Shown here: positions 15,965 through 47,777 of the stretch, in pieces | Layout: every line of letters begins with the position of its first letter | Position numbering within the stretch: position 1 is the first letter of the stretch | DNA from: Candidatus Zixiibacteriota bacterium | GTDB taxonomy: Bacteria > Zixibacteria > MSB-5A5 > UBA10806 | NCBI GenBank assembly: GCA_020348065.1 | Contig: CP070742.1 | Coordinates: forward strand, 3,019,305-3,077,372 | Length of the DNA stretch: 58,068 nt | Direction: 5' to 3' | Notes under the pieces: generated by a model | The model's database searches: none | The model's input: the letters and a program-made list of their open reading frames with translations, nothing else | What the model was told of the DNA's origin: nothing | Position numbers and translations under genes: made by a program

Positions 15965-16174
15965 GATGACTCCGCGCTGAATTCTGTTCGTTCCGGGATT
16001 CCAACCCTGGAAAAAAGAGAAGCGAGGATTCAACCCCCGCTTATGTGTAGATGGCACTACAATTACTGCGGTCTGCACCTGTCTGTGATCCTTGACCGCG
16101 GCCTTTTCATAGGTGACCAAATTGTGACGGTTTTTGAGATGCACACGGCATTCAAATTGATTAACCTCATCCAT
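15953..16174 (-). pseudogene. Integrase C-terminal tail remnant (KNRHNLVTYEKAAVK)
   Basis: A minus-strand frame containing KNRHNLVTYEKAAVK runs on into a block with GCGGGGGTTGAATCCTCGC (about 16022-16040), which is T-arm-like. Its peptide core is identical to the plus-strand remnant at 14225-14305. It overlaps the last 8 nt of the selenoprotein reading and is not expected to be expressed as such. Confidence 0.4.
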
Positions 16175-16568
16175 ACCATGGCTTTTCGTCTATCTCAACT
16201 TGCAGGCCATCCATCAGCTTGTTTAATCCGCTGAACAGATCGACCACAGCCATTAGCTCAACAATACCCTCGTCATCCAATCCAAGCTTCCGCACCGCGG
16301 AAGTGTGGACGGTGAGTCAGTACCGGCATCCCATGACTGCTGATACAGCGACTGCAACGATTTCCTTGGTGAGCGTATCGAGTTTTCCTGGAGCCTGCAT
16401 GACTGTCTTAATTTTGTTCCAGTTCGCTTCAAGGAAATCCGGTTTTACCGCCATTGCTCTGTACATATTAGGGACGAAATCAATGCCAAGGCTCGATCGG
16501 ATATCTTTATAGATCGCCCTGGTTTTACCGGTTGCCTCGGACTCATCTATCATTCTGACAGAAGCCAC
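16167..16568 (-). CDS. Probable selenoprotein: AhpD-like / carboxymuconolactone decarboxylase family (UGA at 16319-16317)
   Basis: Read to the first stop this is only 83 residues and ends GCRY. Reading the TGA as selenocysteine gives 133 residues: C81-R-Y-U84-L-T-V-H88, an exact match to the C-x-x-C-x-x-x-H active site of AhpD-like proteins. Glu69 lies 12 residues before C81, as in the family. The 49 codons after the TGA continue the helical family fold (SAVRKLGLDDEGIVELMAVV) to a TGA at 16169-16167. A stem-loop fitting a bacterial SECIS follows the UGA (separate entry). AhpD-like proteins with CxxU or UxxC centres are known; they act as thiol-dependent peroxidase or redox proteins. The ATG is 1 nt after the upstream stop, so the gene is translationally coupled. 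A nonsense pseudogene is the alternative; no selABCD genes are in the window to test it. Confidence 0.72.
16282..16308 (-). promoter_or_regulatory. Candidate bacterial SECIS element
   Basis: Twenty nt after the in-frame UGA lies a three-base loop GGU (16296-16294) closed by a perfect 7-bp stem CTTCCGC/GCGGAAG (16303-16297 with 16293-16287). A lower CCA/TGG stem is separated from it by a 2x2 internal loop. Bacterial SECIS elements recognised by SelB lie within the coding region about 16-37 nt after the UGA and have a small loop with G in the first positions. All of these fit. Confidence 0.62.
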
Positions 16569-16569
16569 T

Positions 16570-17112
16570 CTATTCCCCCTTTATTAGACTATAAGACCCG
16601 TCTTTGACCGGCCGCGTATCCCGCGGCGAGAAGAGTGTTATACTCTCCAGCTCCAGTGATATGTTACCGGGAAGGCTGAATCTCGGTTGAATGCTCATAA
16701 TTCCCTCACTATCCAGTCCCTGAACTACCTTGCAAGAGGTTGAGTTAACTGAATCGCTAATAGTCTGTACAGCCGCCTCACATCCCAGAACAATCATTGC
16801 GTCATATTTCTTCGCGTATTTCAAAAGTTTTTTCCGCCGCCTGGAGGTCCACATACATAGAACGAATTGGTGTATCAGCCTGCTCCGGAGGACAGCGGTT
16901 CTGACTCCTTTTTTCTCCAGGCCTGATTTCAACGATTCTATATAACGTTCATAGGAATCGGTCTTCATAAATCTGCGGAAGAGCTCGATATAAGGCTCAT
17001 TGTTTCTCACGGCCGAACTTGCAGCCGGGCAAAATCTGCACGGAACTATCAGAACAGATTCAAATTGGTAATATTCAGAGATATCCTTATACCCCTTGAA
17101 TATAAACGGCAT
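16570..17112 (-). CDS. Cysteine-containing protein of unknown function (possibly related to MTHFR_C-type domains)
   Basis: A 180-residue soluble protein without signal or membrane segments. Notable are a CRFCPA motif near residue 26, HQFVLCMWTSRRRKKLL around 85-100, and the block YDAMIVLGCEAAVQTISDSV followed by a Cys. This pattern (a Cys at the end of a beta-strand, then Ala-x-Gln-Thr) recalls the iron-sulfur/cobalamin-associated C-terminal domain seen beside methylenetetrahydrofolate reductases, but I cannot assign it with confidence. It belongs to the ECF-sigma operon and its stop is adjacent to the ATG of the selenoprotein gene, so the two are tightly coupled. The next gene upstream ends 92 nt away; that gap holds nothing I recognise. 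A thiol- or metal-linked role is inference. Confidence 0.6.
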   Translation of the reverse strand: MPFIFKGYKDISEYYQFESVLIVPCRFCPAASSAVRNNEPYIELFRRFMKTDSYERYIESLKSGLEKKGVRTAVLRSRLIHQFVLCMWTSRRRKKLLKYAKKYDAMIVLGCEAAVQTISDSVNSTSCKVVQGLDSEGIMSIQPRFSLPGNISLELESITLFSPRDTRPVKDGSYSLIKGE

Positions 17113-19564: not shown

Positions 19565-19792
19565 CTACCGAATATTATCGATTTTACGAAAGACTATGTC
19601 CTTTATCGATAGAGGAGGATTAACATCCCTTAAAACATATCGTAATATTCTGGAGCATTTATCAAAACTTTCAAGTTCGTTTCGGCATTTCTCACACGAT
19701 GTAAAATGAAGTTCAAACTCAGCTACTTCTTTGTCATCCATTTCTTTATCAAGAAACGAATCTATAATTGCATTGAATTCTACACAATTCAT
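19565..19792 (-). CDS. Zinc-finger anti-sigma factor (zf-HC2)
   Basis: 75 residues, made almost entirely of the anti-sigma zinc-finger domain. The ligands H-x3-C-x2-C (ELHFTSCEKCRNELE) follow an upstream Cys at position 3. There is no membrane segment, so this is a soluble ZAS-type anti-sigma factor that would release its sigma partner on thiol oxidation or metal loss. It overlaps the sigma gene by 4 nt (ATGA), the usual coupling for a sigma/anti-sigma pair. The assignment is strong from motif and position. Confidence 0.88.
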   Translation of the reverse strand: MNCVEFNAIIDSFLDKEMDDKEVAEFELHFTSCEKCRNELESFDKCSRILRYVLRDVNPPLSIKDIVFRKIDNIR

Positions 19793-20391
19793 TGGTCCTC
19801 ACAATCATCCTTACATGACTTCCTGTCGCAGCAAAGCACATCGTTTTTATCGCGGTAAAAATCGCAATTAGATGCCAGGATAGATTGCAGTTTTTTTCGT
19901 GCTCGGTGCAGGCGAATTTTTACCGTGTCCAGCGAAAAATCCAGAATATTCGCAATTTCGCGATTTTTAAATCCCTCGAGATCATGCAAAATTATGACAG
20001 TGCGATAATCCCCGGGAAGACTTTCAATATAATCCCGAATGCATTCGGCCATCTCAGATTTTATTAGGCCCTCTTCAAGTGATAAAATCTTACTGACATC
20101 ATCGATCTGTGTTTCTTCCGAAAAAAAGTCCTGATCCAACTGATCGGTACTTTTGCTCTTCTTATAACCGGATGTCCGGAAATAATCCAGACATGTATTA
20201 GTGGCGATCTGATAAATCCAGGTGGATATTTTGGAATTACCCTGAAAAGATGATAAATTATTGTAGGTTTTTATGAATATTTCCTGTGAAAGCTCTTCGG
20301 CGATATCATTATTGCGCACCATACGCAGGACATAATTATAAATGGGCTTCTGGTAAGTATTGAATATGTCATTAAACTGAATATCCGGCAT
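19789..20391 (-). CDS. ECF-family RNA polymerase sigma factor with Cys-rich tail
   Basis: 200 residues from the ATG at 20391, preceded by GGCGGGGA. An upstream ATG at 20436 would add 15 residues but lacks a ribosome site. Region 2 (YNYVLRMVRNNDIAEELSQEIFIKTY, seen in two halves) and the KISTWIYQIATNTCLDYFR block are followed by region 4 with the helix-turn-helix GFKNREIANILDFSLDTVKI. The C-terminal 25 residues carry six Cys (NCDFYRDKNDVLCCDRKSC), a tail seen in some ECF groups that may sense redox or metal state. It heads the nine-gene operon running down to the selenoprotein and probably activates it. Confidence 0.92.
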   Translation of the reverse strand: MPDIQFNDIFNTYQKPIYNYVLRMVRNNDIAEELSQEIFIKTYNNLSSFQGNSKISTWIYQIATNTCLDYFRTSGYKKSKSTDQLDQDFFSEETQIDDVSKILSLEEGLIKSEMAECIRDYIESLPGDYRTVIILHDLEGFKNREIANILDFSLDTVKIRLHRARKKLQSILASNCDFYRDKNDVLCCDRKSCKDDCEDQ

Positions 20392-20498
20392 ACAATCCCC
20401 GCCAATTAACTCCTTTTCACAAATTAACATATTCATCGCGATCTTTCAAGCATTATTTTCAGCCAAAAATTAAGGGGTTAGTCCATTCTCATCCCGTC

Positions 20499-42966: not shown

Positions 42967-44285
42967 GAATAATTAGAGATTATAGAGCGATAGTAATTCT
43001 GCTGGTTATAGCGTTATTGCCGGGCTGCGGCAAACAAACCGCTCAGCTCGATATCGGTCCCGATGGTTACGGCAAGACGATTATGGCCAACGGAATCAGG
43101 GTGCTGGTCAATCATGATCGGTCGACATCACTTACGGCGGCGAGAGTTCTTATGGGCGGCGGGGTTTTGACTGAGAATTCGGAAAATAACGGTATAACAA
43201 ACCTGATGATAAATATGCTTTTAAAGGGCAACGATACCATGACCGCGGCGGAGATTACCGAACAACTCGATTTCCTCGGAGCCGATGTCTCCAGCGTATG
43301 TTATAGAGACTACAGCGCCATATCCTTTACCTCGCTGACCGAGAATTTCGACCGGGTACTGGAGATTATTTCACAGTCTCTTTTATCGCCGACTTTTCCG
43401 GAGGATGAGTTGGGGAAGCTGAAACATGAGGTCGAGGGAGACATTAAGGCATCCAATGACAATCAGGCGCAGGCCTCTAGCAAGCTGTTCTGGAAAACCG
43501 CCTACGGCGATCAATATTACGGCCTGCCCACTCTCGGAACCGAGCAGTCAATATCCTCAATCACGGTCGATGATATCAAAAAACACTATCAGAAATATCT
43601 CGGCGGAAATAATATTATTTTCTCGGTAGCGACCGATTTGCCCGCCGGTCAAATCAACGCTATCATTCATGAACGGCTGGGGGAAATCGCGCCCGAGGCC
43701 GATACCCTTACGCTTCCGGAGCTGAAACTGCAGGATGAGAAATCGGGATTTATAAAATATGACCGAAACCAATCGTTTATTTTTATGGGTGTTATGTTAA
43801 ATCATCTTGAGCCAAACGAAGTACCATATCTTGTTTTACTAAATGAGATTATGGGCAACAATGTGGGTTCGAGGCTGTGGTATCTGCGGCAGAAAGAAAA
43901 ACTGGCCTATTCCGTATATACCCAATACATGACCGATAAATACGGGGGCGTATTCCGCGCCGCAATAGGTACCGATACCACCAAGGTCAAAGTGGCTCTA
44001 AATTCTCTGAACCGTGATTGGAACAGGCTAATCCGGGACGGCGTTACCATGGAAGAGCTTCAGGACGCCAGGATTAACATGAAAAACAACCTGATTTATT
44101 ACATCGATCGCAAGTCCAACAGGGCCAATTACATGGCCTATTATGAATATATGGGCTACGGTTACCGCTTTGTTCCGGATTTAATCGAAATGGCGGATCG
44201 AATCAATCTGGATGAACTGAATGAATTCGTCAAGGATGAATTTACCGAGGACAGGAAGTTTGTCTCAATTGTGGGAAAGAGGTAA
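42963..44285 (+). CDS. M16-family protein, non-catalytic partner, lipoprotein
   Basis: 440 residues. A signal peptide ends in a lipobox L19-P-G-C22, so the protein is membrane-anchored. The fold is M16 (GVLTENSENNGITNLMINML, then DFLGADVSSVCYRDYSAISF), but the H-x-x-E-H motif is replaced by I-T-N-L-M, so no zinc site exists. This is the usual state of the alpha-type, substrate-holding subunit. It overlaps the catalytic gene by 4 nt. The two proteins probably form a heterodimer, with this one tethering it to a membrane. The C-terminal half keeps the R-x-x-x-x-Y...Y motif region (RLWYLRQKEKLAYSV). Confidence 0.88.
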   Translation: MRIIRDYRAIVILLVIALLPGCGKQTAQLDIGPDGYGKTIMANGIRVLVNHDRSTSLTAARVLMGGGVLTENSENNGITNLMINMLLKGNDTMTAAEITEQLDFLGADVSSVCYRDYSAISFTSLTENFDRVLEIISQSLLSPTFPEDELGKLKHEVEGDIKASNDNQAQASSKLFWKTAYGDQYYGLPTLGTEQSISSITVDDIKKHYQKYLGGNNIIFSVATDLPAGQINAIIHERLGEIAPEADTLTLPELKLQDEKSGFIKYDRNQSFIFMGVMLNHLEPNEVPYLVLLNEIMGNNVGSRLWYLRQKEKLAYSVYTQYMTDKYGGVFRAAIGTDTTKVKVALNSLNRDWNRLIRDGVTMEELQDARINMKNNLIYYIDRKSNRANYMAYYEYMGYGYRFVPDLIEMADRINLDELNEFVKDEFTEDRKFVSIVGKR

Positions 44286-44637
44286 ACGAATTTAAATTTT
44301 ATATATTATAGTCTAAAGCGGGATGCTGCCGGGAATTGATGTAATTTTACTTGATTCGCAACGCTGACACCAGGGGAATGCCGAAACTGGAATATTTGAT
44401 AATCCTGGAAGGCAAATTGAAACTACCTTAACCCCCTTTCCCCCCTGGAATACATAATGTTACGCGAAATGCAGAGTACGTTTCGGCAGGGATTTACCTA
44501 TACAGGATTAAAAAGGGTGAATTAGATTAGACCCGGAAAATGGATTTATTGAGATAGCGTTTTAGAATTATATCGAGTGCATGTATGAAATTTCGCGGAT
44601 TTCTGCCAGGTGTTTAAGGTAGTAATAGATCGACTGG
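44286..44637. other. Convergent intergenic stretch without a recognised feature
   Basis: About 350 bases between the M16 operon and the convergent ABC operon. No gene, RNA or clear terminator hairpin could be supported. Confidence 0.3.
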
Positions 44638-45300
44638 CTAATCCTCTATCCATCCGTCGAGAAGTTTTATTATCCTGCTCCCGTACGCGGCGTTTTTCTC
44701 CGAATGGGTTACCTGGAGGATGGTTGTGCCCTCGTCGTTTAATTTTTTCAGCAAGTCCATGATTTCTTTGCCCTGCTCGGAATGGAGATTCCCGGTGGGC
44801 TCGTCGGCCAATAGCAGTTTGGGCTCCGCGATAATGGCCCGGGCGATACCCACCAGCTGCTGCTGGCCGCCGGAAAGCTGATTGGGGAAAAGATCTTTTT
44901 TCCCAACTATTTGAAACCTGTCGAGGGTATCGCAAACCATGCTCTTGCGTTGTGAGCTTTTTATTTTTTTGTATATGAGCGGAGTCTCCAGGTTTTCGTA
45001 TACGGTCAGCTCATCGATAAGGTGATAGCTCTGGAATATGAATCCAATGAACTGCTTGTAGAGATCTACTCTTTTTCTCTCGTTCAACTTTTGTACCGAT
45101 TCCCCGAGAAAATGGTATTCCCCCTCGGACATGGAATCGAGCATACCGATGATATTAAGGAGAGTCGACTTACCGGCTCCGGAGGGTCCCATGATGGTCA
45201 TAAACTCTCCTTCGTTGATCTCGAGATTTATTTTTCTCAGCACATATGTATTTACTTTGCCGGAGGAATAACATTTGGAGACGTTTTTTAAATCTATCAT
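44638..45300 (-). CDS. ABC transporter ATP-binding protein (MacB/LolD type)
   Basis: 220 residues from the ATG at 45300, spaced 9 nt from AAAGG; the ATG at 45309 abuts that site and is less likely. Walker A is GPSGAGKST (about 38-46), the signature is [17 protein letters not shown], and Walker B is [12 protein letters not shown]. The D-loop and switch His (TILQVTHSE) are present, and the size and sequence are those of the LolD/MacB/FtsE group. It would power mechanotransmission-type permeases at the inner membrane. It is the last gene of the operon and the only ATPase for at least six permeases encoded upstream on the same strand. Confidence 0.93.
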
Positions 45301-45350
45301 GCCTTGCATCCTTTGTAAATTATCAATTAGAAATTTCTGATTATCCTGTA

Positions 45351-47777
45351 TTATTCATCCCTGAGTGAATTAACCGGATTTGCCACCGCCGCCTTAACAG
45401 CTTGAAACCCTGACGTAAGCAATGCCAGCGCCAACGCCATGATACCAGCAAGTAAAAAGGTTCCGGCGCCTATGGAAGCTCTAAAGGGAAACCATTGCAG
45501 AAAACTCTGCATCAATGAATAAGCCAGGGGCCAGGCGATGATATTGGAAATGGCTATGAGGATCACAAACTCCCTTGAAAGCATTTTCACTATATTCGGA
45601 ACAGAAGCCCCCAGAACCTTTCTGATACCAATTTCCTTTGTCTTTTTTTCCGCGGTAAAAGATACCAGGCCGAATATTCCCAGGCAGGCAATTAATATGG
45701 CCAGCGCGGAGAGAACCGAAAACATCTTCACGCTTCCTCTATCATCATTATAATTGCTCTCAATCAGATCATCCAGAAACGCGTAATCGAAAGTCTTTCC
45801 CGGAAAGGTCGAATCCCATGTTTCCTTGATGGCGGTAACGGAGGCCGATATATCTTGCGGCGGCAATTTAACCACCAGATTAGTAAGCTCTTCCGGTTCC
45901 GGGCTTAGAATGATTTGAGGCCTGTAGGAATAATTCAAAGGTGTTCCGTGAAAGTCTTTTAATACCCCTACTATCTCAACCAGGCCGTCCTTGCGGTAAA
46001 GTTTGTGGCCGATTGGTTCGGTTATTTTGAGGTCTTTGACTACAGCCTCGGTTACCATGACGGTGTTTTTGCCGTCGACCGAACCGTACTCGGAAAATGA
46101 GCGGCCTTTTATGACGTCGAGACCAAAGGTCGATATGAAGTTATCATCCACGCAGAATTTTTTAAATACTACCCTGGAGCTATCCTCGAACGATTGGTCT
46201 TTGTAATATGTGTAAAAGGTATGTCCCTGCGAGCCGGGAGGATCATTTGTGGCGGTAACGGACAACACCTTATTCTTTTTTTGAATTTCGTTTTTCAATA
46301 TGGCCGCATTTTCGGCGGCTTTTTTGCCGATGAAATTTATGACCAGCATGTTTTCTCTTTTGAATCCCAGCTCCATGTTGGCGATATAATTAATCTGTCT
46401 GTAAATGATTGTGGTCGAGCATATAAAACCGATAGCTATGGTGAACTGAAATACCACCAGCCCCTTTCTCAATAAGGACTTTGAAGACTTAATGCCGGAT
46501 TTTCCCTGTAGTACGGCGATGGGGCGGAACCTTGAAAGATATAAGGCGGGATAAAATCCGGCCAATACTCCGACCGCGATGGTTAAAGCGATCACCAGGA
46601 TTACCATTATGCCATTATGATAAAAATCCGCAAACATCTGCCGCGGAAGGAGATCTTCTATAATGATTTTAAAAATCTCGTAAGCGAGCAAACCCAATAT
46701 AACCGAGATAAATGTTATAATAATAGATTCTCCGATAAACTGCCGGATCAGATGCGATTTATGGGCGCCGAAAACCTTACGCACTCCCACCTCCCTGGTT
46801 CGATCGGACGATCTCGCGGTGGAGAGATTGATGAAATTAGCTATGGCCAGAAGCAGCACAAACCCGGCGACCACGCCGATTTCGATCATCATAGATGCCT
46901 CCCCGTGGGGGCTTAGATCGCCCATGCGACCGGAACCGTAATAGCTGAAATAAATATCTTTCAAAGGCTGAAGCTCAAATTCGTACTTGGAGGCGGTTTC
47001 TTTTCCCACATGCCGCTGGAAAATGGCCGATATTTTCGCTTCAACCTCCGCAAGATTAACATCTTCATTTAAGAGCATATAGACAAAATCACGATCGTAT
47101 TTTTCCCACGAGGCTAAATTTTCATCAATATGTTGAAGGCTGGAATATGATACTATGAACTCACAATTAAGTTGGGTATTAGGAGGGATCTCCTTCAACA
47201 CGCCGGTTATCCGGCAGGTGAGTTTATCGTTGATTTTTACGACCCGGCCGATAGGATTTATGCCCTTGAAATATTTTTGGGCCGCAGGTTCGGTGATCAG
47301 CATGGTGAACGGCTCTCTCAGCGCGGATTTCGGATCGCCGGCGACTAAAGGCAGGGTGAAAATTTCAAGGTATTCGGGATCGGCACAAAAAACGTTAGCA
47401 TCATATTTGAAACCTTCCCGTGCCGCCTCATACCGCTCCATGAAGCTGCCCTCGCCGATGGAGAGATCGATATTTCCGATGACTCTGAAAACCGCGATTT
47501 TTTGGGTCTCGGGAAGGCTCTCCCTTAGCGCCGGCCCCAGGGGCGACATGACCAGGGAGGAATACAGCTCGGTATCCTCGGCCCTGTATTTAAGATTTAC
47601 CCGGTAAATGCGATCCTTATTTTGGTGGAAATCCTCGAAGCTGAGCTCGTAGCTGATATGCCCGATGACGATCAGGCATAACGCCAGCCCGATCGCCAGG
47701 CCGAAAATGTTAATAAGAGAATATATTTTATGCCTTGCCAGCATTCTTAATGCAACCATTATGTAGTTTTTCAACAT
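45351..47777 (-). CDS. ABC permease, FtsX/MacB type, duplicated form (array member 6)
   Basis: 808 residues. The plan is an N-terminal TM (about 20-42), a periplasmic MacB core domain (about 43-285), three TMs (about 290-420), a fourth TM near 440, a second periplasmic core, and three C-terminal TMs (about 680-800). The cytoplasmic signature TAEKKTKEIGIRKVLGASVP precedes the last TMs, and its earlier counterpart is SDRTREVGVRKVFGAHKSHL. Such ~800-residue permeases resemble the orphan permeases of FCB bacteria and Acidobacteria. This gene is 50 nt before the ATPase gene. Its first 35 residues are nearly identical to those of the next upstream permease, suggesting recent duplication or gene conversion. 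Confidence 0.9.
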   Translation of the reverse strand: MLKNYIMVALRMLARHKIYSLINIFGLAIGLALCLIVIGHISYELSFEDFHQNKDRIYRVNLKYRAEDTELYSSLVMSPLGPALRESLPETQKIAVFRVIGNIDLSIGEGSFMERYEAAREGFKYDANVFCADPEYLEIFTLPLVAGDPKSALREPFTMLITEPAAQKYFKGINPIGRVVKINDKLTCRITGVLKEIPPNTQLNCEFIVSYSSLQHIDENLASWEKYDRDFVYMLLNEDVNLAEVEAKISAIFQRHVGKETASKYEFELQPLKDIYFSYYGSGRMGDLSPHGEASMMIEIGVVAGFVLLLAIANFINLSTARSSDRTREVGVRKVFGAHKSHLIRQFIGESIIITFISVILGLLAYEIFKIIIEDLLPRQMFADFYHNGIMVILVIALTIAVGVLAGFYPALYLSRFRPIAVLQGKSGIKSSKSLLRKGLVVFQFTIAIGFICSTTIIYRQINYIANMELGFKRENMLVINFIGKKAAENAAILKNEIQKKNKVLSVTATNDPPGSQGHTFYTYYKDQSFEDSSRVVFKKFCVDDNFISTFGLDVIKGRSFSEYGSVDGKNTVMVTEAVVKDLKITEPIGHKLYRKDGLVEIVGVLKDFHGTPLNYSYRPQIILSPEPEELTNLVVKLPPQDISASVTAIKETWDSTFPGKTFDYAFLDDLIESNYNDDRGSVKMFSVLSALAILIACLGIFGLVSFTAEKKTKEIGIRKVLGASVPNIVKMLSREFVILIAISNIIAWPLAYSLMQSFLQWFPFRASIGAGTFLLAGIMALALALLTSGFQAVKAAVANPVNSLRDE

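What the first reader, a model, noticed from the sequence alone, without database searches (positions are those of the whole stretch)
16167..16568. Probable new selenoprotein: AhpD-like redox protein with a Cys-x-x-Sec centre
The in-frame TGA falls exactly on the second Cys of the C-x-x-C-x-x-x-H active site. The family fold continues for 49 codons beyond it, including the GLDDEG and C-terminal helices, and a stem with a GGU loop begins 20 nt downstream. A standard gene caller would report only an 83-residue fragment. Selenocysteine in AhpD-like proteins is known; its use in this lineage and operon may not be described.
Basis: partly seen in the sequence, partly recalled or inferred. Interest (0 to 1): 0.82.

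Follow-up and report, generated by a model that had tools for sequence, protein, structure and literature searches.

The report
AhpD-like enzyme with two selenocysteines
A small bacterial redox protein, cut short by ordinary gene callers, is really read through two UGA 'stop' codons to place selenocysteine both in its active site and at its C-terminal tail, and the RNA signal for the second one lies beyond the true stop codon.

Summary
The gene (16568 to 16161, minus strand) encodes a 135-residue AhpD/CMD-fold protein with two Sec residues. Sec84 sits in C81-R-Y-Sec84-xxx-H88. The true stop is TAA at 16163-16161.
In 21 distinct homologues from about seven phyla both sites are TGA; in eight close homologues both are Cys; no mixed case was found. 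The codon after the second TGA is Gly in 19 of 21 homologues, using all four GGN codons. The real stop is TAA, TAG or TGA, but site 134 is always TGA.
Each UGA has its own conserved hairpin. One lies in the coding sequence. The other lies past the stop, with compensatory changes and non-triplet spacing changes. The genome carries selA, selB, selD and tRNA-Sec.
CxxU AhpD-like selenoproteins are known. This two-Sec subfamily, with a bacterial SECIS in the 3'UTR, is not in the 2026 review's catalogue or in NCBIfam. The function (peroxide or disulfide reduction using a selenium tail) is inferred from fold and active-site residues only.

The parts
16161..16568 (-). Two-selenocysteine AhpD/CMD-like protein gene, 135 aa, GTG start at 16568, stop TAA 16163-16161
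   Evidence: PF02627 E=1.6e-16; AF2 pLDDT 88.6 and Foldseek hit 2ouw TM 0.79
16317..16319 (-). UGA codon 84 = Sec of the C-x-x-U active site
   Evidence: TGA in 21 distinct homologues, TGT/TGC in 8
16287..16303 (-). SECIS 1, in the coding sequence: CUUCCGC-GGU-GCGGAAG, loop 20 nt after UGA84
   Evidence: compensatory changes in L031, L032, L033; synonymous conservation peak at codons 89-94
16167..16169 (-).
   Evidence: TGA in 21 of 21 Sec forms, Cys in 8 of 8 Cys forms; next codon GGN in 19 of 21; real stop varies TAG 8, TGA 7, TAA 6
16161..16163 (-). True stop codon TAA
16133..16156 (-). SECIS 2, wholly past the stop codon: UUUGAAUGC-CGUGU-GCAU(C)UCAAA, loop 19 nt after UGA134
   Evidence: conserved in 21 homologues at 16-21 nt with non-triplet spacing; 4 of 7 pairs with changes on both sides; this copy carries a one-base bulge
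16020..16042 (-). Intrinsic-terminator-like hairpin with T run, about 90 nt past SECIS 2
   Evidence: suggests SECIS 2 is transcribed and is not the terminator
16570..17112 (-). Upstream neighbour, 180-aa family with CxxC and further conserved Cys, function unknown; stop codon 1 nt before the GTG start
   Evidence: no Pfam or NCBIfam family; next to or within about 1.4 kb of the two-Sec gene in most Zixibacteria loci, L023 and L030

Best explanation
The gene encodes a two-selenocysteine AhpD-like redox protein. Step 1 (strongly supported): when the ribosome reaches UGA84, SelB carrying Sec-tRNA binds SECIS 1, about 20 nt downstream in the coding sequence, and Sec replaces the second Cys of the AhpD CxxC-xxx-H centre. 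Step 2 (strongly supported): at UGA134 the same thing happens with SECIS 2, which lies entirely in the 3' untranslated region. The ribosome then adds Gly135 and stops at UAA. Step 3 (inferred from fold and residues): Sec84 is the peroxidatic or disulfide-attacking selenolate, activated by the Glu69/His88 relay, and Cys81 resolves it. Step 4 (inferred, weaker): the flexible PWYG-Sec-Gly tail is a second redox centre that reduces or pairs with the Cys81/Sec84 centre, within or between subunits, much as the C-terminal Gly-Cys-Sec-Gly arm works in mammalian thioredoxin reductase. Ribosomes that fail at UGA134 would release a 133-residue one-Sec form. The stated confidence is for steps 1 and 2.
For: Sec machinery in the genome: selB-selA-selD cluster (selD itself holds one in-frame TGA) and tRNA-Sec with anticodon tca. 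Both sites are TGA in 21 distinct homologues from Zixibacteria, Myxococcota/'Delta', KSB1, Krumholzibacteriota, Gemmatimonadota, Planctomycetota and Chloroflexota, and both are Cys in 8 homologues, with no mixed case. Codons 85-133 evolve as coding, e.g. 20 synonymous against 6 non-synonymous codon differences to L023. Codon 135 is GGN in 19 of 21 with all four third bases, and the true stop varies while site 134 never does. SECIS 1: synonymous conservation 0.86 over codons 89-94 against a gene mean of 0.44, with compensatory pairs, one forcing Arg to Gln. SECIS 2: 94.6% of cells paired, 4 of 7 pairs changed on both sides, covariation 0.303 against 0.185 shuffled (0 of 500 as high), and slid controls far lower. 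Spacing to the loop is 16, 17, 18, 19 or 21 nt, so the hairpin is kept as RNA, not protein. Both hairpins meet the published bSECIS rules on spacing (16-37 nt) and a G early in the loop (PMC13188914). Cys homologue L034 keeps a 15/16 relic of SECIS 2 (0 of 5000 shuffles). selB is over cut-off in 15 of 16 Sec genomes and 4 of 8 Cys genomes. E69, C81, U84 and H88 map without gaps (offset 49) onto E118, C130, C133 and H137 of M. tuberculosis AhpD 1gu9 (roles of those residues from own knowledge).
Against: No protein or Se-labelling data. The window's own SECIS 2 has a bulged stem and is only about -6 kcal/mol over 40 nt (published rule: at most -7.5) with z = -0.95; its support is comparative. 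The Cys/Cys forms are one clade (98/95), so the coupled Sec/Cys state at the two sites may reflect only one or two evolutionary events. The tail is low-confidence in the model (pLDDT about 54), so nothing shows that it reaches the active site. No enzyme assay exists. Nearly all homologues come from MAGs.
Confidence: 0.87

Rival explanations
1. One-Sec protein: UGA84 is Sec, but UGA134 is an ordinary stop, and the downstream hairpin serves another purpose (mRNA stability, terminator).
For: Most catalogued prokaryotic selenoproteins have one Sec (PMC13188914). The window's SECIS 2 is weak alone.
Against: Site 134 is TGA in 21 of 21 although the codon two to four positions later uses all three stops (TAG 8, TGA 7, TAA 6). 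The codon after it is GGN with all four third bases. All eight Cys homologues have Cys-Gly or Cys-Ala at this point. The hairpin sits at bSECIS spacing with a G-rich loop and covariation. The likely terminator lies about 90 nt further on.
Confidence: 0.09
2. Nonsense pseudogene or sequencing error.
For: An in-frame TGA truncates the standard ORF.
Against: The same TGA and the same hairpins occur in 21 distinct genes in about seven phyla under clear coding constraint, and the Sec machinery is present.
Confidence: 0.01
3. The TGA codons are read as Trp or another residue through a changed genetic code.
For: In-frame TGA.
Against: selA, selB, selD and a tRNA-Sec are present. The TGA sites align with Cys, not Trp. 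A scan of the window for one-TGA read-through ORFs with Cys/Ser/Thr-U motifs found no second convincing gene, and TGA ends this gene in several homologues.
Confidence: 0.01
4. The protein is a two-Sec selenoprotein as described, but the C-terminal Sec is not a redox partner of the CxxU centre. It binds a metal or soft ligand, or docks a partner protein such as the conserved 180-aa CxxC neighbour. (This competes with step 4 only, not with steps 1 and 2.)
For: The tail is flexible in the model. Sec in UXX-star and related families is suspected to bind metals (PMC13188914). The Cys-rich 180-aa neighbour recurs beside the gene in three phyla.
Against: The two sites change together between Sec and Cys, which fits a chemical couple. 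No metal-transport genes were recognised beside it in the loci examined (ORFs there were not systematically annotated).
Confidence: 0.3

Closest known systems
CMD domain-containing / AhpD-like selenoproteins with CxxU (Sargasso Sea and GOS sets: PMC1088965, PMC2398784; review PMC13188914)
   Same: Same fold family (PF02627), Sec at the second position of CxxC, bSECIS just downstream in the coding sequence.
   Different: Listed with one Sec; no C-terminal Sec and no 3'UTR SECIS described in the passages read. Whether the listed accession MBW1767730.1 belongs to this subfamily could not be checked.
TIGR01926 peroxidase-related family and R. rubrum AhpD core protein 2ouw
   Same: Closest fold (TM 0.79, 38% identity over 130 aligned columns) and closest HMMs.
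   Different: 75.1 bits, under the TIGR01926 cut-off of 81.8. The 2ouw match ends at profile position 128, before the PWYG-U-G tail.
Mycobacterium tuberculosis AhpD (1gu9, 1knc)
   Same: Glu118/Cys130/Cys133/His137 map onto E69/C81/U84/H88 without gaps.
   Different: 177-aa protein with Cys only; no C-terminal redox tail known to me.
Multi-Sec selenoproteins with an AhpD part: ArsM/AhpD fusion NF041537 (3 Sec) and MduS (2 Sec)
   Same: AhpD-type CxxU plus further Sec in one protein (PMC13188914).
   Different: Much longer methyltransferase-containing proteins; only weak similarity over the AhpD core (21.8 and 16.4 bits against cut-offs of 510 and 380).
Selenoproteins with Sec at or near the C-terminus (UXX-star, KCU-star, SaoC, HgcB)
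   Same: Sec a few residues from the end (judged from their names and motifs), so their SECIS should also reach past the stop (inference).
   Different: Unrelated folds by name. [quoted passage not shown]

Membership tests
AhpD/CMD family (PF02627) | Match to the family profile above its cut-off | tested here: met
   60.4 bits against cut-off 23, residues 43-123, with TGA read through
AhpD/CMD family (PF02627) | Glu-x11-Cys-x-x-Cys-x-x-x-His active site | tested here: met
   E69, C81, U84 (Cys in homologues), H88; ungapped to 1gu9. In the Cys/Cys clade H88 is Tyr
AhpD/CMD family (PF02627) | All-helical AhpD core fold | tested here: met
   AF2 pLDDT 88.6; Foldseek 2ouw E=1.6e-9, TM 0.79
AhpD/CMD family (PF02627) | Peroxidase or reductase activity and oligomeric assembly | not testable with these tools
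   needs protein
TIGR01926 peroxidase-related subfamily | Score above curated cut-off | tested here: not met
   75.1 against 81.8 bits
NF041537 ArsM/AhpD and NF045649 MduS multi-Sec selenoproteins | Score above curated cut-off, methyltransferase domain present | tested here: not met
   21.8 against 510 and 16.4 against 380 bits; no methyltransferase domain found in the protein
Selenoprotein (site 84) | In-frame TGA aligned to Cys in homologues, SECIS downstream, Sec machinery present | tested here: met
Selenoprotein (site 134) | In-frame TGA aligned to Cys, coding evidence beyond it, SECIS downstream | tested here: met
Bacterial SECIS model (PMC13188914 Fig. 2) | Loop 16-37 nt from UGA; 4-16 bp stem; 3-9 nt loop; G in the first two loop positions | tested here: met
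   SECIS 1: 20 nt, GGU loop. SECIS 2: 16-21 nt, CGUGN loop
Bacterial SECIS model (PMC13188914 Fig. 2) | MFE at most -7.5 kcal/mol | tested here: inconclusive
   SECIS 1 -11.3; the window's SECIS 2 about -6 over 40 nt and -8.9 over 57 nt; L027 and L031 -13.2
Bacterial SECIS model | Located inside the coding sequence | tested here: not met
   SECIS 1 is inside; SECIS 2 lies past the stop in 20 of 21 homologues, and in L031 the stop TGA overlaps its stem
Selenoprotein | Selenium shown in the protein | not testable with these tools
   needs mass spectrometry or 75Se labelling

The most novel reading that the evidence does not exclude
This is a distinct, horizontally spread subfamily of AhpD-fold enzymes that work by an internal selenium relay: the active-site Cys-Sec pair is recharged by a second Sec on a mobile C-terminal tail (a diselenide or selenenylsulfide couple). 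The second Sec is inserted by a bacterial SECIS lying wholly in the 3'UTR, so selenium supply sets the ratio of a short one-Sec and a long two-Sec form of one gene.
Probability: 0.35. Interest if true: 0.78.

Novelty: new variant of a known kind. Interest (0 to 1): 0.62.

Why it matters
Gene callers that stop at the first TGA give an 83-residue fragment here, and even Sec-aware callers would probably accept the second TGA as the stop. The case shows that Cys-aligned terminal TGA codons followed by a hairpin in the 3'UTR should be tested for Sec. [quoted passage not shown] The paired Sec/Cys state at two distant sites gives a directly testable case of a selenium-selenium or selenium-sulfur relay in a small helical enzyme.

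Tried and rejected
Nonsense mutation or assembly error: rejected, same TGA in 21 distinct genes. Changed genetic code: rejected. SECIS 2 as a rho-independent terminator: rejected, no T run follows it and a better candidate lies further on. A Sec reading of a third TGA in homologues with TGA-GGN-TGA: not favoured, that TGA is only about 13 nt from the loop and is replaced by TAA or TAG in sister genes. Rfam has no matching family over the gene. Single-sequence folding energy is weak evidence here (z -1.4 and -0.95). A viral-contig scan found nothing. The best plasmid hit is 44% identical and covers only residues 1-127, so no plasmid copy of the full form was seen. The fold of the 180-aa neighbour gave no usable match (pLDDT 67, best E 0.013). 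Two key papers (Haft and Gwadz 2023; Haft and Tolstoy 2025) are not held, so the novelty claim rests on the 2026 review and on NCBIfam 20.0.

Full report
WHAT IS THERE. On the minus strand, a GTG-started frame at 16568 runs through TGA at 16319-16317 (codon 84) and on to a second TGA at 16169-16167 (codon 134), then GGT and TAA at 16163-16161. A standard caller gives 83 residues. Read through, the product matches CMD/AhpD (PF02627, E=1.6e-16) and folds as an AhpD core (AF2 pLDDT 88.6; Foldseek 2ouw TM 0.79). Glu69, Cys81, residue 84 and His88 fall on Glu118, Cys130, Cys133 and His137 of M. tuberculosis AhpD with a constant offset of 49 (active-site roles from own knowledge).

SEC MACHINERY. 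The window lies in a 3.74 Mb single-contig genome. It holds selB (C1:41879-43735), selA (43783-44847) and selD (45177-46118, itself with one in-frame TGA) side by side, plus a tRNA-Sec with anticodon tca.

HOMOLOGUES. A scan of 84,980 species genomes and searches of six phylum or relative sets gave 21 distinct Sec-type genes, counting the window. They come from Zixibacteria, 'Deltaproteobacteria' (Myxococcota in the taxonomy used), KSB1, Krumholzibacteriota, Gemmatimonadota, Planctomycetota and Chloroflexota, at 69-88% identity. Eight close Cys homologues come from Chloroflexota, Aminicenantes, Planctomycetota and others at 52-61%. Residue 84 is TGA in the first set and TGT/TGC in the second. 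The distribution is patchy: 8 of 133 Zixibacteria genomes and one or a few of several hundred elsewhere, which suggests lateral transfer (inference).

THE SECOND SEC. In every one of these genes the codon at position 134 behaves in the same way as codon 84: TGA in all Sec forms, Cys in all Cys forms, within an invariant W-x-G-[U/C] context. If it were an ordinary stop it should drift among TAA, TAG and TGA, as the real stop a few codons later does (TAG 8, TGA 7, TAA 6), yet it is TGA 21 times of 21. The next codon is GGT, GGA, GGC or GGG in 19 cases, GCT in one and AGC in one. That is the signature of a translated glycine.

TWO SECIS HAIRPINS. SECIS 1 (16303-16287) is CUUCCGC-GGU-GCGGAAG with its loop 20 nt past UGA84. 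Codons 89-94, which it covers, show 0.86 identical codons among divergent genes with the same residue, against a gene mean of 0.44. L031 and L032 replace a C-G by a U-A pair, at the cost of Arg to Gln, and L033 replaces U-A by G-C. SECIS 2 (16156-16133) is GAAUGC-CGUGN-GCAUUC in consensus and lies past the stop codon (in L031 the stop TGA overlaps its stem). Its loop is 16, 17, 18, 19 or 21 nt from UGA134, so its frame relative to the gene shifts and it cannot be kept for its protein meaning. Four of seven pairs show changes on both sides; paired cells are 94.6% and covariation is 0.303 against 0.185 shuffled, with slid controls at 16-50% paired. L077 has a partly rewritten stem (GGAUAC/GUAUUC) that still pairs. 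Both hairpins meet the published spacing and loop rules (PMC13188914). The window's own SECIS 2 carries a bulge and is weak in isolation. A terminator-like hairpin with a T run lies about 90 nt further on, so SECIS 2 is probably transcribed and is not the terminator.

EVOLUTION. The PW-x-G-[U/C] subfamily is one clade (100/99) apart from AhpD relatives without the tail, and the Cys/Cys forms are one clade within it (98/95). L034, a Cys/Cys gene, still holds a 15-of-16 match to SECIS 2 after its site-134 codon (0 of 5000 shuffles), and L034 and L035 keep 13 of 17 positions of SECIS 1 in register. These look like fossils of Sec decoding, so at least this lineage probably went from Sec to Cys. 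selB is over its cut-off in 15 of 16 Sec genomes and 4 of 8 Cys genomes; the one Sec genome without it (L024) is a fragmented MAG.

HOW IT WORKS. Shown by comparative evidence: two Sec insertions, each with its own SECIS. Inferred: Sec84 is the reactive selenolate, resolved by Cys81; the flexible tail (pLDDT about 54) carries Sec134 as a second redox centre that exchanges with the first. The coupled change of both sites (21 Sec/Sec, 8 Cys/Cys, none mixed) favours a chemical couple but rests on few events. In E. coli only 30-40% of UGAs before a SECIS are recoded (PMC4513850). If that held here, full-length product would be a minority and a 133-residue one-Sec form would accompany it (inference). 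In the window the operon also holds a 180-aa CxxC protein with no known family and, further upstream on the same strand, an ECF sigma factor with a zinc anti-sigma resembling RsrA (2.5e-07) and a YgaP-like membrane segment. Parts of this order recur in L017, L018, L020 and L042, which fits thiol or oxidative stress control (inference).

KNOWN OR NEW. CxxU AhpD-like and CMD selenoproteins date from 2005 (PMC1088965; PMC2398784). The 2026 review lists them with one Sec, and the multi-Sec proteins with an AhpD part are long methyltransferase fusions. NCBIfam 20.0 has no model whose cut-off this protein passes except the general AhpD core domain. [quoted passage not shown] C-terminal-Sec families such as UXX-star and KCU-star imply exceptions, but I could not read their source papers. 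I therefore call this a new variant of a known kind.

Noticed in passing
16570-17112 (-): 180-aa protein with invariant CxxC (C25, C28) and C86, C111, C127; no Pfam or NCBIfam family. It recurs beside or within about 1.4 kb of the two-Sec gene in most Zixibacteria loci, L023 and L030.
   Followed up: partly
19565-20436 (-): ECF sigma factor plus zinc-type anti-sigma factor resembling RsrA, followed by a Cys-rich 76-aa protein and a YgaP-like membrane protein; order kept in L017, L018, L020 and L042. Possible thiol-stress operon.
   Followed up: partly
L034 2744-3190: Cys/Cys homologue from Chloroflexota that keeps a 15/16 relic of SECIS 2 downstream of the gene; L034 and L035 also keep 13/17 of SECIS 1. 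Fossil SECIS elements.
   Followed up: yes
L110: Planctomycete AhpD relative with TGA at the CxxU site only and no C-terminal PWYG-U tail; a one-Sec cousin.
   Followed up: partly
L108: Gene with Sec at site 1 whose similarity breaks off after about residue 117; assembly break, frameshift or decaying copy.
   Followed up: no
L019 and L021 (one genome); L033 and L042 (one genome): Two paralogous two-Sec genes in the same Zixibacteria genome, so the family can duplicate.
   Followed up: no
L111 (genome C1:45177-46118, minus): selD in the window's genome has its own in-frame TGA, so it is itself a likely selenoprotein.
   Followed up: no
L024 2603-3214; L030 4757-5917: Genes next to the two-Sec gene that join an AhpD-like segment (AAAFAVNCT) to a histidine-kinase-like segment; possible redox-sensing kinase.
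   Followed up: no
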